Below are positions 7,903 through 13,379 of a DNA stretch of 64,000 bases, piece by piece. The stretch lies in the NCBI RefSeq assembly GCF_005862235.1, contig NZ_VCEK01000005.1, positions 186,001 to 250,000 on the forward strand. The letters are read 5' to 3'. A program made the position numbers and the translations under genes. This stretch comes from Saccharomonospora piscinae. Its GTDB lineage: Bacteria; Actinomycetota; Actinomycetes; Mycobacteriales; Pseudonocardiaceae. The notes under the pieces were generated by a model. It ran no database searches and was not told where the DNA came from. It saw only the letters and a list, made by a program, of their open reading frames with translations. Numbering within the stretch: position 1 is the stretch's first letter; every line of letters begins with the position of its first letter.

Positions 7903-8141
7903 GCCGCCGTTCTACGGCAGCGATCGTGATCCCGCGAGTCGCGACGGTGCGATCGGAAACAGCTCGTCTCTGGTCATTGCTCGTTTCACGATCTTTTCTA
8001 CAGAGGGTGCTGCGACGCAGGCCACGATGCCGTCCACTATGTCGTCAATTGCCCTGAAAAGCCGATTGTGTGTGCTTCTCGCGGTCTGGAAGGGTGGGCG
8101 ATCGATTAGCGGGGGTAACTATCGCTGGGGAGAGTGCGCGC

Positions 8142-11100
8142 GTGGTCGAACGGAATCAGCAGCGTCGAAGACGACGCCGTCAGCTTCGGGCCGGATCGGT
8201 GTCGGGGCTCGTGGTCGGCGTTCTCGCGAGTAGCGCCATGTCGGCGCCCGTCGTCGGGGCGGACGAGCAGCTGGTGACCCCGCAGGACCGGTCCGAGGTC
8301 ATGCGGATGTGGCTCGACGGCGGGGACGCGCTGCGTGCTGCCGCCGGGCAGGCCCTGGCGGGCACCGCGGACGAGCTCAAAGAGTTCCTGGACGGCGGGT
8401 CCGAGCGCGCCCGGCACCAGGATCTCCGAGTCCGGGTCGGCTGGATGATGGACAGCAGCGGCCCAGCCCTGCGATTCGCGGCGAACGAGGTGCTGGAGGT
8501 CGGCACCACCGAGGCGCTGGAATCCTTCCTGGACGGGGGGTTTCGCTCGTCCTACCGAACAGACCTGCGGTTCCGGACCGCCCGCGCCAAAGCGACCGGT
8601 GGCGAGGCGGTGCAGCTGGCCGCCGAGACCGCGCTGGACGCCGACACCGAGGAAGCGCTGGAGGAGTTCCTGCGGCAGGGATGGGCGCAGCGGCACCACA
8701 CCGATCTCAGGTTTCAGGTGACCCGCGCCAAAGCCACCGGTGAAGAGTCCGTACGGGAGGCGGCTGAGGCGGCACTGGACGCCGACACTGTCGAGGCACT
8801 CACGCTGTTTCTCCAGCATGAGTGGGAGGTGGCCCGGGCCCGCGACGGCGAGCCGGCCACGGTGACCGAACTGGTCGAGCGTGCCGACAGGGCCGGTCAG
8901 CAGGCCCGGGAACACACTGTGACAGCAGAGTGGGCCACCAGTCGTGCCGTCGCGGCGGCGGAGCGGGCCGAGGACGCCGCGGAGCGCGCCAGAGCGGAGA
9001 CCGAAGCGGCCCAGGGTGATGACTCGCTCGCTTCCGCCACTGCGGGCGAGGCCGCGCGTGCCGCGCGGCAGGCAGTCGTGGCCGCGCGCACGGCGATCGG
9101 CGCGGCGATCGCGGCGATCGATGCGGCGCGGGTGGCGGCCGACGCGGCCTCGCACGCGGCCTCGGCGGCGGGCCTGGCGGAGCAGGCGGCGGCGCAGGCG
9201 TACTCGGCCGCGTCCGCTGCGGCGCTGGATGCCGCCCAGGCTCCGGCCGCACGCGACGCCGCCGAGATCGCCCGCACCGCGGCGACGGGCGCGAACCGGG
9301 CGGCGGACGCGGCGCGCGACGCCGGGAGCGCGGCGCGGGACGCGGCCTCGGCGGGCGGGACGGCCGCGAGTACCGCGGCCCACGTCGCCGCTGCGGGTGC
9401 CGCCGCGACGCAGGCAGGCCAGTACCCCGGGGTTTCCGACGAGCAGGCACACCGTGCTGCCGCTGCGGGCGACGAGGCGCGGGCGCAGGCGCAGCAAATT
9501 CAGCGCGCGGTGGACGAGGCCACCACCCTGGCCGACCGTTCGGCCGCCGCAGCCGACAGCGCGGCCGACACGGCCACCTCGGCTTTCGAGGACGCGAACG
9601 ACGCGGCCGCCGCTGCCGAGCACGCGGCCGAGCACGCGGGCGACCAGGCGGGCGGACCGGAGGACGCGGCCAGCCATGCCGACAGCGCCATCGACGCGGC
9701 GCACGCCGCGGTGGCTGCCGCCGAGCAGTCCCAGGAAGCCCTCGGGGCGGCCCGGGATGCAGAGGCGGAGCGGGTCGAGCAGGACGAGCTGGCGCTCGTC
9801 CACACCGCCCAGCAGGCACACGATTCGTGGGAGGCCCACCAGGACCGTCAGGCGTGGGACCGGGCCGAGGAGGCCCGGATCAGCGAGCGGACCCGGCAGT
9901 TGCTGGAGGCGGCCACCGCGCCGGATGCGGATGACCAGACAGTGTTGACCAGCGGCCGACAGGCGGCGGTCGACATCCTGACCACCGGGGGAACGTGGAG
10001 CCGCCAGGCGGCCCAGCTCGCGTTGACGGGGACGGACGCCGACATCCGGCTTTGGCTCAGCGCTGGCCGGGAGGCCGCCGCGATCCAGGACGACCGCGCG
10101 ACCGTGGCGACTATCGCGGAGCAGGGCGAGCCGGGGGAGCTGCGGGCGGCGGCCGAGGCGGCGCTGGACGGTACGGACGAGCAGGTGCGCGAGTTCCTAG
10201 CCGATCGCGACTACGAGGGCCGCGTCACCTACGAGCGGTTACAGACCACGAAGATCAAGGCTGCCGCGATCGGGCCTGCGGTCACCGAGGCCGCCGAAGC
10301 CGCGTTGGACGGCACGCCGGAGGACGTGCGTCAGTTCCTGGAGGTCGGTCAGCATGAGGCGCGACAGATCGACATGAGGTTCGCGACCGCCCGGATCAAG
10401 TCCGCCGGTGGTCCGAGGACTCAGAGCGCGGCCGAAGCGGCTCTGCACGGGCCACCGCCATGGACGGAGAACTTCGTGTCGTCCGGGCATCAGCTCTCCG
10501 TGCAGCGCGATGAGCAGGCAGCCACGCACGCCGACGAGATGGACCGCCTGGCCGTCCTCGGCCTGCAGGGGGCAGCCGAAGCGGGCTGGGACGCGAACAC
10601 GGCGGCGGAGTCGGCCGCGCTGGCGCGTGGCGCGACGGACGAAGCGGCCGATTACGCGAGAGAAGCCGAGGACTCGGCGGCACGCGCCGCCGACTACGCC
10701 GAGCAGGCCGGGACGGCGGCGGACGAGGTCCAGGCGTCGGCGGAACGGGCCGAGGTGGCGATGGCGAGCGTCAAGGAGGCGGCGGACGACGCGAGACGGG
10801 CCGCGAGCGACGAGACGGAGTCGGTCGTCGGTCACCATCGTTCGGCTGCCGACGCGCGCGACTACGCTGGCGGCGCCTACACCGCAGCCGAGCAGGCCCG
10901 TGCGGAAGCGCTGGCGGCGGGTCTCGGCGACGAGGCGGCGGCGCTGGCCGCCGACGACGCTCGCCGGGCCGAGGTCATGCTCCGAGCGCAGGAGTACGAG
11001 GACAAGCGCCGAAATCGTCCGGAGATCACCGAAACGGACGTCGAACTGGCGTCGCGGGAATTCTCCTCCGACGAGCCTTCGGATCGGTGTCTTCCCCTGG

Positions 11101-11387
11101 TCGGTTTCCTGGGGGTCTACTGCTGGGACAACGTCGGCGCACCGTATGCGACCTCGGAGGAAGACCGGATCGACCGGATCGAACAGCGAGTCGCGGCACT
11201 CGATCGGAATCGGGACGGTCTTGGGCACTGTGCGGCTGTCCCGGTTGTGTCCGACGCGAGATCCGGTGTCACCGGGGGCTGGCTGGGAGGCACGCTCGGC
11301 GGTGGCGGGGGACTGTCGGACGGAAGCGTCCTGGGACGCACCGGTGGCGCGTTCTCGGAGACCGTCGTCGGTGCGCTCGTGTGCTAG
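8142..11387 (+). CDS. secreted ALF-repeat / alanine-rich coiled-coil protein
   Basis: A 1081-residue protein starting at GTG 8142, chosen because GGGGAGAG lies 8 nt upstream. The N-terminus has an arginine block (RRRRRR) then a hydrophobic stretch, SGLVVGVLASSAMSAPVVGA, read as a signal peptide. Residues about 45-230 and 600-770 contain repeats of the ALF type (for example LAGTADELKEFLDGG, LDADTEEALEEFL, LDGTPEDVRQFLEVG). Between and after them are long Ala/Glu/Asp coiled-coil stretches. The last 100 residues include CLPLVGFLGVYCWDNVG and a glycine-rich end (GTLGGGGGLSDG) finishing in VGALVC. Related actinobacterial proteins can carry a toxin tip, but none is recognisable here. Function unknown. 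Confidence 0.75.
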   Translation: MVERNQQRRRRRRQLRAGSVSGLVVGVLASSAMSAPVVGADEQLVTPQDRSEVMRMWLDGGDALRAAAGQALAGTADELKEFLDGGSERARHQDLRVRVGWMMDSSGPALRFAANEVLEVGTTEALESFLDGGFRSSYRTDLRFRTARAKATGGEAVQLAAETALDADTEEALEEFLRQGWAQRHHTDLRFQVTRAKATGEESVREAAEAALDADTVEALTLFLQHEWEVARARDGEPATVTELVERADRAGQQAREHTVTAEWATSRAVAAAERAEDAAERARAETEAAQGDDSLASATAGEAARAARQAVVAARTAIGAAIAAIDAARVAADAASHAASAAGLAEQAAAQAYSAASAAALDAAQAPAARDAAEIARTAATGANRAADAARDAGSAARDAASAGGTAASTAAHVAAAGAAATQAGQYPGVSDEQAHRAAAAGDEARAQAQQIQRAVDEATTLADRSAAAADSAADTATSAFEDANDAAAAAEHAAEHAGDQAGGPEDAASHADSAIDAAHAAVAAAEQSQEALGAARDAEAERVEQDELALVHTAQQAHDSWEAHQDRQAWDRAEEARISERTRQLLEAATAPDADDQTVLTSGRQAAVDILTTGGTWSRQAAQLALTGTDADIRLWLSAGREAAAIQDDRATVATIAEQGEPGELRAAAEAALDGTDEQVREFLADRDYEGRVTYERLQTTKIKAAAIGPAVTEAAEAALDGTPEDVRQFLEVGQHEARQIDMRFATARIKSAGGPRTQSAAEAALHGPPPWTENFVSSGHQLSVQRDEQAATHADEMDRLAVLGLQGAAEAGWDANTAAESAALARGATDEAADYAREAEDSAARAADYAEQAGTAADEVQASAERAEVAMASVKEAADDARRAASDETESVVGHHRSAADARDYAGGAYTAAEQARAEALAAGLGDEAAALAADDARRAEVMLRAQEYEDKRRNRPEITETDVELASREFSSDEPSDRCLPLVGFLGVYCWDNVGAPYATSEEDRIDRIEQRVAALDRNRDGLGHCAAVPVVSDARSGVTGGWLGGTLGGGGGLSDGSVLGRTGGAFSETVVGALVC

Positions 11388-11427: not shown

Positions 11428-11490
11428 CTGGCCAGGCAGGTGTAGACCCGCCTGGCCAGAGGCGCACGCCAGATCGGCCGGCGTCCCGTT
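11428..11490. repeat. direct repeat 1: copy of cobT 3' end plus terminator hairpin
   Basis: About 63 bp closely matching the region at 12300-12362, which is the cobT 3' end and its hairpin. It retains the inverted repeat CTGGCCAGGC / GCCTGGCCAG and, in the same orientation, the complement of the cobT C-terminal codons (GCCGATCTGGCGTG). Only scattered mismatches separate the two. It lies 40 nt after the ALF-protein stop and may act as its terminator. Confidence 0.8.
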
Positions 11491-11520
11491 ACGGTGGCTT
11501 TCGCTTAGAGAGTTGCGGAG

Positions 11521-11903
11521 ATGCCCTTCGAGTTTGTGTTCCCCGACAACGTCGAGCCCTTGGCTGGCGAGCGAGTGTTCGCCAGGTATCCCGCGAATCG
11601 GAGGCAAGGTGCGAACAACGCGGTCGGCGGGCTTTTATGGCTGACAAGTCATCGCGTATTGTTCACATCTCACGCGCTCGACTCTCGCTTGGGTGGGAAA
11701 AATTGGTCAACATCGCGCGACAATGTTGTGTCCGCTGATGTTGTTGCGTGAATTTGTTGGAGTTTTTTGGCGGAGGTCTGCGGAGGCGGCTGAAACTGGA
11801 ATTTCGCGTTGGAAAGCCTGAAATATTCGTCGTAGGTCAGTTCTCCGGTCCAGGCAACGTGAATCACGTCGTACTGGAATTCAGGTCCTGGATTCTTCGA
11901 TGA
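11521..11903 (+). pseudogene. GRAM-domain protein, broken by one frameshift
   Basis: ATG 11521 follows TTGCGGAG and opens a frame that stops early at 11751. Its residues read GERVFARYPANRRQGANNAV then GGLLWLTSHRVLFTSHALD, matching the start of small bacterial GRAM (PH-like) domain proteins. A different frame then continues without stops from about 11752 to TGA 11901-11903, encoding LEFFGGGLRRRLKLEFRVGK and PEIFVVGQFSGPGNV, which is what should follow in the same domain. A single-base deletion near 11748-11753 would join them into a product of about 127 residues. It could be a true pseudogene or a base-call error. The DNA is visibly AT-richer than its surroundings. Confidence 0.65.
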
Positions 11904-11914
11904 TTGAGCATCGT

Positions 11915-11978
11915 CTGACCAGGCAGGTGCGAGCTCGCTGGGTCAGAGGCTTGCACCAGATCAGTCAAGCGTTCCGTT
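11915..11978. repeat. direct repeat 2: diverged copy of cobT 3' end plus hairpin
   Basis: About 64 bp aligned over its full length with copies 1 and 3 (CTGACCAGGCAGGTGCGAGC at its start, CACCAGATCAG in the middle). It is more diverged, and the hairpin arms now hold mismatches (CTGACC / GGTCAG still pair at the base). It begins 12 nt after the GRAM pseudogene stop, in the same orientation as the other copies. Confidence 0.7.
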
Positions 11979-12084
11979 CATCCGAGTGCTTGGAGGGCGA
12001 TTGAGATTTCCGGATGACGGCGCGTTGACAGGTGCGGCGGGGAGTGAGTTTCTCGATTGCCTCTAGTGCAGATAGGTGTGACTG

Positions 12085-12246
12085 TTGAGCAGAGAGCAAG
12101 TCGTCAAAGCGTTAGCGTTGGTCGGCGTTGCGTGTTGTTTGACCGCTGTTATTGGAGGGTTAATAATAGGATTCTACTATATCGTGGTTTTGTCCGCTAT
12201 TGGTGTAGTGATCAATTTGTCGCTCTTTTTTATGCAACAGAAGTAG
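12085..12246 (+). CDS. small two-helix membrane protein
   Basis: A 53-residue frame with a TTG start at 12085, stop TAG 12244-12246. It begins SREQVVKALALVGVACCLTA, continues VIGGLIIGFYYIVV and LSAIGVVINLSLFF, and ends MQQK: two hydrophobic helices with a charged N-terminal cap. An in-frame TGA directly upstream limits the start to CTG 12082 or TTG 12085. The Shine-Dalgarno is weak (TAGG). No family recognised. Support comes from the coherent hydrophobic pattern and its position as the only content between repeats 2 and 3. The DNA is strikingly AT-rich for this genome. Another overlapping frame (12057-12317) is judged spurious. Confidence 0.45.
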   Translation: MSREQVVKALALVGVACCLTAVIGGLIIGFYYIVVLSAIGVVINLSLFFMQQK

Positions 12247-12299
12247 GGTTGCTTGGAGTTGGCTCTTCCGAAAGTACCGCATTCTCGGGTCGATTCACC

Positions 12300-12362
12300 C
12301 TGGCCAGGCAGGTGTGAGCCCGCCTGGCCAGCGGCTCACGCCAGATCGGCCAGCAGTCCCAT
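12300..12362. terminator. cobT terminator hairpin and direct repeat 3
   Basis: The inverted repeat CTGGCCAGGC (12300-12309) / GCCTGGCCAG (12322-12331) forms a strong 10-bp stem just past the cobT stop at 12336-12338 and, read the other way, past the upstream module. It lacks a T-run, as is common in high-GC actinobacteria. With the adjoining cobT C-terminal codons it forms the parent copy of the repeats at 11428 and 11915. Confidence 0.7.
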
Positions 12363-13379
12363 CTCGCTGATCACGGCCTGCGCCGAGCGCAGTAGTGGTA
12401 CCGCCTGGACGGCTCCGCTGCCTTCGCCGAGCCGCAGGCCGAGGTCCAGCAGCGGCGTCAGCCCGAGTGCCTTCAGCGCGAACGCCTGGGACGGCTCCGT
12501 GGAGCGGTGGCCCGCGAGCCACCAGCGCGGCGCTTCCGGGGCCAGTTCGGCGCCCACCAGCGCCGCCGCGCACGAGAACACGCCGTCGAGCAGCACGGGC
12601 GTGCGGCGTTCGGCGGCGCGCAGCACGAAACCCGCCGTGGCCGCCGCGCACGCGCTGCCCAGCGCCGTGAACGTCGACAGCGGGTCGCTCGCGCGGTCGG
12701 CGGTCCTGGCGAGCGCGGCGCGCACGGCCGCGACCTTGCGGGCGCGCCCCGCCTCGTCCACACCGGTTCCGGTGCCCACGACGTCCTCGGCCGGCAATCC
12801 GAGTACGGCCGCCACCAGTGTGGCGGCGACCGTGGAGTTGCCGATGCCCATGTCGCCGGGGATCAGCAGGTCCGCCCCGGCGTCGATCTCCGCGTCGGCC
12901 ACCGCCATGCCCGCCGCCAGGGCGCGTTCGGCCTCGCCGGGCGCGAGCGCGTCGGTGACGTCGATCGAGCCGGAGCCGCGCCGGATCTTGTGGGCGGTGA
13001 CCTCGGCGGGGACGTCCGCCAGCTCGCCGTCCACCGCGATGTCCAGCACCCGCACCCGCGCGCCGACCTGGCGTGCCAGCACGGTGACGCCGCTGGTGCC
13101 CGCGAGGAACACGCGCACCATCGACGCCGTCACCTCGCGCGGGTAGGCCGAGACGGCGCCGTGGGGGCCTGCCGGGTCGGACACGCCGTGGTCACCGGCG
13201 AACACGACCACGCGCACGTCGTCCAGCGGGCGGGGCGGCATGCTGCCGTGGGCGGCGGCCAGCCAGGCGGCCAGCTCCTCCACCCGCCCCAGGGAACCGA
13301 CCGGCTTCACGAGGCCGTCGAGGTGGGCCAGCGCCTCCAGGCGGGCGGTGTCGTCGGGCAGCGGGATATCGAAACGCAC
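12336..13379 (-). CDS. cobT: nicotinate-nucleotide:dimethylbenzimidazole phosphoribosyltransferase
   Basis: A 347-residue CobT that makes alpha-ribazole 5'-phosphate from nicotinate mononucleotide and dimethylbenzimidazole for the lower ligand of B12. Signatures are LVKPVGSLGRVEELA, VVVFAGDHGVSDPAGPHGAV, the nucleotide loop LLIPGDMGIGNSTVAA and GTGTGVDE. The family's late glutamate is probably in HRSTEPSQ. GTG 13379 was chosen because GAGAGGAC lies 6-10 nt upstream and the length fits. It follows cobU by 11 nt and ends in the hairpin at 12300. Confidence 0.94.
   Translation of the reverse strand: MRFDIPLPDDTARLEALAHLDGLVKPVGSLGRVEELAAWLAAAHGSMPPRPLDDVRVVVFAGDHGVSDPAGPHGAVSAYPREVTASMVRVFLAGTSGVTVLARQVGARVRVLDIAVDGELADVPAEVTAHKIRRGSGSIDVTDALAPGEAERALAAGMAVADAEIDAGADLLIPGDMGIGNSTVAATLVAAVLGLPAEDVVGTGTGVDEAGRARKVAAVRAALARTADRASDPLSTFTALGSACAAATAGFVLRAAERRTPVLLDGVFSCAAALVGAELAPEAPRWWLAGHRSTEPSQAFALKALGLTPLLDLGLRLGEGSGAVQAVPLLRSAQAVISEMGLLADLA

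What the first reader, a model, noticed from the sequence alone, without database searches (positions are those of the whole stretch)
11428..12362. Two foreign modules flanked by three copies of the cobT 3' end and its terminator
About 63-bp direct repeats at 11428, 11915 and 12300 each contain the CTGGCCAGGC hairpin and the reverse complement of the last cobT codons. They bound a GRAM-domain pseudogene and a small membrane-protein gene, both in AT-richer DNA. Copy 1 is closer to the parent than copy 2. The arrangement looks like repeated capture of small cassettes at the cobT 3' end, either by site-specific integration or by recombination between terminator hairpins. No integrase is present.
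Basis: partly seen in the sequence, partly recalled or inferred. Interest (0 to 1): 0.76.

Follow-up and report, generated by a model that had tools for sequence, protein, structure and literature searches.

The report
Copied terminators beside a toxin-immunity gene
Three related hairpins, two of them copies of the end of a vitamin B12 gene, sit among the worn remains of a probable antibacterial toxin's immunity gene; this looks like an old local duplication rather than a DNA-capturing site.

Summary
The three direct repeats are real: 11428-11487, 11915-11969, 12300-12362. Each holds a hairpin (strong in two) plus sequence from the last ~30 bp of cobT; copy 1 is closer to the cobT copy than copy 2. 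A 72-nt query finds them nowhere else in the genome. The exact hairpin is absent from 11 other genus genomes, and among 91 cobT loci only the window has copies of the cobT 3' end above background.

The gene left of copy 1 is a UmbC-type umbrella-toxin gene (eight ALF repeats; PDB 8w20, E 2e-101). A GRAM-like gene follows UmbC, or a UmbC-like protein, in 5 of the 12 genomes that have it. So the broken GRAM gene is probably UmbC's usual partner (candidate immunity gene), and copy 1 lies inside that pair. The membrane ORF has no relative in 389 other family genomes and may be an older decayed GRAM copy (weak, mixed evidence).

Best reading: local, probably tandem, duplication of GRAM plus the cobT terminator junction, then decay. 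No tyrosine or serine recombinase match lies on this contig. Repeated cassette capture is not supported.

The parts
8070..11387 (+). UmbC-type umbrella toxin gene (eight ALF repeats as four plus four, Ala-rich stalk, Gly-rich C-terminal domain ending in Cys); open 1105-aa ORF
   Evidence: Pfam ALF E 1.2e-53; eight repeat matches; phmmer to PDB 8w20_A, residues 39-992, E 2.3e-101
11428..11487 (+). R1: hairpin plus decayed copy of the cobT 3' end, between umbC and the GRAM pseudogene
   Evidence: 6 of 55 differences from R3
11521..11903 (+). GRAM-like pseudogene, candidate immunity gene of the umbC; frame broken near 11748 (pieces 11521-11751 and 11748-11903)
   Evidence: profile from relatives hits frame 1 (1.3e-27) and frame 0 (4.2e-9) in a six-sequence search; 58% and 51% identity to the G005 gene
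11915..11969 (+). R2: most diverged copy, 14 of 55 differences from R3, 10 of them GC in R3 and AT in R2; one stem pair changed on both sides (G4-C29 to A4-T29)
12085..12246 (+). 53-aa TTG-start hydrophobic ORF, doubtful gene, possibly part of an older decayed GRAM copy
   Evidence: no relative in 389 other family genomes; block of 45 alignment columns with 33 identities, 12187-12231 aligned with 11725-11768
12300..12362 (+). R3: parent copy, terminator-like hairpin 12300-12331 plus the last codons of cobT
12336..13379 (-). cobT (nicotinate-nucleotide--dimethylbenzimidazole phosphoribosyltransferase); GTG start presumed
   Evidence: Pfam PF02277 E 1.8e-111; translation; the enzyme name for this family is recalled

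Best explanation
The locus is a umbC toxin gene with a worn-out candidate immunity gene (GRAM-like) that ended up convergent with cobT. The hairpin next to cobT serves as terminator, probably for both directions. The junction 'hairpin + last ~30 bp of cobT' was then duplicated locally twice. The simplest route is tandem duplication of a unit running from just before the GRAM gene, through its terminator, into the end of cobT. This gave umbC - (GRAM-R)n - cobT, followed by loss of the first GRAM copy and decay of the others: R1, broken GRAM, R2, unrecognisable remnant with the small ORF, R3. Shown: homology of the three copies, cobT as the source of the tail, absence of comparable copies in the relatives searched, and umbC-GRAM pairing elsewhere. 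Inferred: the tandem route, the deletion, the terminator function and the immunity role.
For: The tail CCAGATCGGCCAGCA... is cobT coding sequence conserved at the cobT end in relatives without the hairpin, so R3 is the source. The three copies lie within 1 kb and nowhere else in the genome. Of 91 cobT loci only the window has downstream copies above background: R1 E 2.6e-15 and R2 5.2e-8, against 2.0e-5 for the best of the other 90 and 3.4e-7 for the best upstream control match. A GRAM-like gene lies just after a UmbC or a UmbC-like protein in G000, G002, G344, G005 and G004, that is 5 of the 12 genomes with the gene out of 390. In G002 the pair has hairpins of its own after umbC and after GRAM. 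The R2-R3 interval aligns with the GRAM module in the same order better than most dinucleotide shuffles: 22, 25, 14 and 27 of 1500 as good under four scorings. After the shared tail R1 and R2 read CGTCCCGTT and CGTTCCGTT, while R3 reads AGTCCCATC. No PF00589 or PF00239 match on this contig.
Against: A GRAM profile does not recognise the R2-R3 interval, and the GRAM genes of G005 and G002 do not align with it better than shuffles (227 and 832 of 1000 as good). Against 268 real AT-rich windows 10, 14, 0 and 8 score as well under the four scorings, so the similarity is unremarkable under three of them. Strict local tests of the 100 bp right and left of the copies fail (162 and 423 of 500 shuffles as good). 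The left flanks show nothing in any pair (R1-R2 225, R1-R3 132, R2-R3 114 of 300 as good), though the model predicts GRAM 3' ends left of R2 and R3. The R1-R2 right-flank test (4 of 300) hardly differs from R1-R3 (16) and R2-R3 (10 of 300). The model needs an extra deletion because R1 follows umbC directly. In G005 the 34-bp gap before GRAM has no strong hairpin, so a terminator there is not universal. R2's E-value (5.2e-8) is less than tenfold better than the best control match.
Confidence: 0.5

Rival explanations
1. Only the terminator junction was copied, by template switching or end-joining at the strong hairpins, into pre-existing gaps after umbC and after GRAM; the R2-R3 interval is unrelated DNA.
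For: R1 and R2 sit where hairpins sit in the G002 pair; similarity hardly extends past ~60 bp; no deletion of a first GRAM copy is needed; one R2 stem pair changed on both sides, as if the hairpin was kept.
Against: Two separate insertions of the same ~60-bp stretch are needed; the R2-R3 interval shows weak collinear similarity to the GRAM module.
Confidence: 0.27
2. Site-specific integration: small elements carrying a copy of the cobT 3' end and hairpin as attachment site integrated twice at cobT and restored its end each time; the enzyme acted in trans or was lost.
For: Direct repeats include the gene's own 3' end, as at many integration sites (recalled); intervals are AT-rich.
Against: No PF00589 or PF00239 match on the contig, though the genome has 8 and 1 elsewhere; of 91 cobT loci no other has copies above background; copy spacings of only 487 and 385 bp; GRAM is a recurrent neighbour of umbC, so its landing next to umbC would be a coincidence.
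Confidence: 0.12
3. A genome-wide terminator or REP-like element that happens to lie here three times.
For: The unit is a strong palindrome.
Against: Three places only in the own genome, exact hairpin pattern absent from 11 other genus genomes, and the copies carry cobT coding sequence.
Confidence: 0.02

Closest known systems
Umbrella toxin loci (umbC with downstream umbD), Zhao et al. 2024, PMC11062931
   Same: [quoted passage not shown] abstract and sections 4, 10 and 35 read, passages of sections 5-7, 11 and others seen)
   Different: The neighbour is a GRAM-like gene, here broken; no trypsin-like (UmbA) match on the contig; C-terminal domain without a Pfam match; cobT-derived hairpin repeats in the gaps
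Homogeneous polyimmunity loci, Zhang et al. 2012, PMC3482391
   Same: Possible tandem copies of one immunity-type gene behind a toxin gene (passages seen)
   Different: Only one recognisable copy, broken; the second is a weak inference
Genomic islands integrated at the 3' end of a gene (recalled, not from a call)
   Same: Direct repeats that include the target gene's 3' end
   Different: No recombinase match on the contig, very small intervals, no other occupant found in the cobT loci searched

Membership tests
[quoted passage not shown]
   Eight matches, four within 194289-194834 and four within 195957-196490 of contig C7
Umbrella toxin UmbC | Homology to the solved UmbC1 scaffold | tested here: met
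   PDB 8w20_A, E 2.3e-101, residues 39-992; that 8w20 is the umbrella particle is recalled, the depositor's molecule name reads 'Intein C-terminal splicing domain-containing protein'
Umbrella toxin UmbC | N-terminal TAT signal | not tested
   An Arg-rich start followed by a hydrophobic stretch is visible in the sequence; no predictor was run
Umbrella toxin UmbC | Variable C-terminal toxin domain | tested here: inconclusive
   C-terminal 120 aa without a Pfam match; related tails in G002 and G005
Umbrella toxin UmbC | UmbB encoded within ten genes | not tested
   No UmbB model at hand
Umbrella toxin UmbC | umbA (trypsin-like) nearby; orphan umbA elsewhere is allowed | tested here: not met
   Seven trypsin matches in the own genome, none on C7; G002 has one at 3079461-3080072 beside its umbC
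Integrative element at a gene 3' end | Direct repeats containing the gene 3' end | tested here: met
Integrative element at a gene 3' end | Integrase or recombinase in or next to the element | tested here: not met
   PF00589 and PF00239 matches all on other contigs
Integrative element at a gene 3' end | Occupied and empty sites among relatives | tested here: inconclusive
   Of 91 cobT loci only the window shows copies above background, but no second strain of the species was available
Homogeneous polyimmunity locus | Two or more tandem paralogous immunity genes | tested here: inconclusive
   One recognisable GRAM copy; second copy only weakly suggested

The most novel reading that the evidence does not exclude
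Arrays of immunity genes behind umbrella toxins grow by tandem duplication that drags along the convergent neighbour's terminator and 3' end, so each added copy arrives with its own insulating hairpin; this locus is a fossil of such growth.
Probability: 0.12. Interest if true: 0.5.

Novelty: new member of a known kind. Interest (0 to 1): 0.27.

Why it matters
It removes a claimed capture hot spot and replaces it with a local duplication. It also points to a GRAM-like small protein as a candidate immunity family for umbrella toxins, and to a genome in which the toxin ORF is open while the only recognisable candidate immunity gene is broken, which would be informative if tested.

Tried and rejected
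Genome-wide terminator element: rejected. Recurrent insertion at cobT in relatives: 91 loci tested, nothing comparable (G011 was left out because only a ~51% identical relative of cobT was found there, and some loci had less than 10 kb downstream). Mobile GRAM gene: the G005 protein has no match at E 1e-3 in the plasmid or phage records. Repeat arrays near other GRAM genes: parts of five regions were searched for direct repeats of 40 nt or more within 3 kb. L132 and L134 had none; L133 had three 43-nt copies (63-72%); L136 a 21-nt-period repeat tract; L135 one two-copy repeat (300 and 192 nt, 77-78%, about 1.87 kb apart). None of these was compared with a neighbouring gene end. Proof that the R2-R3 interval is a GRAM copy: tried by DNA alignment and by profile, outcome mixed to negative. 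One profile row (G367) was read in a wrong frame, which blurs that profile. In one search several query proteins (the aminotransferase, mgtE and cbiB stretches) were taken in a wrong frame and say nothing; one search replaced them. UmbC in G344: missed with low-complexity masking at E 1e-4, found as one stalk stretch without masking. Papers: search listings only. No listed paper held 'umbrella toxin' together with 'GRAM domain' (10 of 48 listed). None of the six listed of 90 held cobT. One search found none. An earlier count gave the similar block as 12189-12233; computed it is 12187-12231.

Full report
Observation. R1 (11428-11487) and R2 (11915-11969) are copies of R3 (12300-12362), which is a 32-nt hairpin followed by the last codons of cobT on the minus strand. 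Ungapped over 55 positions, R1 differs from R3 at 6 and R2 at 14; ten of the latter are GC in R3 and AT in R2. In the own genome (4.9 Mb, 11 contigs) a 72-nt R3 query finds only these three places. R1 and R3 fold far better than shuffles, R2 only modestly. In R2's stem one pair changed on both sides (G4-C29 to A4-T29), two pairs became G-T and one broke.

Direction of copying. The tail of R3 is cobT coding sequence that is conserved at the cobT end in genomes without the hairpin: G001, G004, G005 and G007 of the genus and others of the family. In the family search 18 of 390 genomes, the own included, have a match at E 1e-4; in all rows listed for the other genomes the match starts at query position 27 or later, after most of the 32-nt hairpin (only two candidates per genome were scored there). 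So R3 is the source and R1 and R2 are copies.

Uniqueness. The exact hairpin pattern is found in 1 of 12 genus genomes, the own one; three of the others are only 82-83% complete. I tested 91 cobT loci (80 from genome contigs, 10 from the genus, and the window; G011 left out) for a second copy of the 120 nt around the cobT end, up to 10 kb downstream. The window gives E 2.6e-15 (R1) and 5.2e-8 (R2). The best of the other 90 is 2.0e-5 (L063). The upstream control of the same test reaches 3.4e-7 (L082), so R1 stands far above background, R2 only somewhat, and nothing else does. Downstream of cobT, six genus genomes have a directly adjoining, mutually similar sequence that I take for cobS (recalled, not run against a library). 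The four nearest (G004-G007) have other ORFs there.

The genes around the repeats. The ORF left of R1 (8070-11387) carries eight ALF repeats as four plus four and matches PDB 8w20_A over residues 39-992 at E 2.3e-101 (that this entry is the umbrella particle is recalled). That is the architecture described for UmbC of umbrella toxins (PMC11062931; abstract and sections 4, 10 and 35 read, passages of others seen). In that paper a candidate immunity gene lies immediately downstream of umbC1 (passage). Here the next gene is a GRAM-like one with a broken frame near 11748; a profile from relatives finds both pieces in two frames. A search of 390 family genomes finds the gene in 12. It follows a UmbC-type gene in G002, at 3.07 Mb, far from that genome's cobT at 1.0 Mb. 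It follows a UmbC stalk fragment in G344: missed with low-complexity masking, found without it (54.5% over 121 aa, E 2e-10, no hit in 12 control regions). In G005 it follows, and in G004 it is fused to, a small protein similar to UmbC's C-terminal domain (E 9e-11 and 2e-9) and, less clearly, its start (2e-5 and 0.005); these are two-sequence searches without composition correction on Gly-rich sequence, so the E-values are optimistic. In the remaining seven no UmbC was seen; four of those were examined only over about 3 kb. R1 therefore interrupts a gene pair that recurs elsewhere without it, and GRAM need not be a captured cassette. In G002 the pair has other hairpins of its own after each gene, so the positions of R1 and R2 have precedent; G005's 34-bp gap before GRAM, however, has no strong hairpin.

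The small ORF. The 53-aa hydrophobic ORF (12085-12246) has no relative in 389 other family genomes at E 0.01, a sub-cut-off Pfam hit only and no NCBIfam hit. The interval that holds it shows weak similarity to the GRAM module in the same order: 22, 25, 14 and 27 of 1500 dinucleotide shuffles score as well under four scorings, and a block of 45 alignment columns has 33 identities (11725-11768 with 12187-12231). Against 268 real AT-rich windows the figures are 10, 14, 0 and 8. Earlier, simpler tests gave 1 of 200, 1 of 500 and 6 of 1000. Against it: the GRAM genes of G005 and G002 do not align with the interval better than shuffles (227 and 832 of 1000), a GRAM profile does not see it, and strict local tests of the 100 bp right and left of the copies fail (162 and 423 of 500). 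I count this as a hint, not a result.

Mechanism. The facts need a local process that copied hairpin plus cobT end twice towards umbC. Tandem duplication of 'GRAM plus terminator plus cobT end' explains why R2 lies behind GRAM, why R1 is followed by GRAM and R2 by DNA that hints at GRAM, and why no enzyme is needed; it requires one extra deletion between umbC and R1. Copying of the terminator alone requires no deletion but two insertions. Site-specific integration fits the repeats but not the absence of a recombinase match on the contig (8 tyrosine- and 1 serine-recombinase matches, all on other contigs; transposases not searched), the small intervals, or the lack of other occupants at the cobT loci searched. 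I put local duplication of some form at about 0.77 in all, the tandem route at 0.5.

Limits. Only one genome of the species was available, so the empty-site test between strains could not be made. Terminator function, immunity function of the GRAM-like protein and toxicity of the UmbC C-terminus are inferred. The own genome holds no second GRAM-like gene at E 1e-5, so either the toxin domain is inactive, another gene protects the cell, or the GRAM-like gene is not the immunity gene.

Verdict. It is most likely a local duplication scar, so far seen in one species, in a degenerating umbrella-toxin locus.

Noticed in passing
window 8070-11387 and 11521-11903: Open UmbC ORF next to a broken candidate immunity gene, with no second GRAM-like gene in the genome at E 1e-5 and no trypsin-like match on the contig.
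   Followed up: partly
L116 9597-9976 (G005) and L115 8713 onward (G004): A small protein (126 aa in G005) that resembles UmbC's signal region and C-terminal Gly-rich domain but lacks the ALF repeats and the stalk; in G004 it is fused to the GRAM-like gene.
   Followed up: partly
about L116 9435-9525, L115 8300-8390, L114 12170-12275: A similar ~95-bp stretch with AAACTCA..TGAGTTT-like palindromes upstream of the small UmbC-like gene, and beside cobT in G007; looks like an operator or promoter, seen by eye only.
   Followed up: no
L132 (G002), contig 3076311-3078514: The ALF repeats of G002's UmbC lie in two open frames (520 and 647 aa), so that gene may be broken or misassembled; a trypsin-like match lies beside it at 3079461-3080072.
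   Followed up: no
L117 3972-4055 (G006): A stray cobT fragment next to runs of unknown bases, probably a scaffolding artefact.
   Followed up: no
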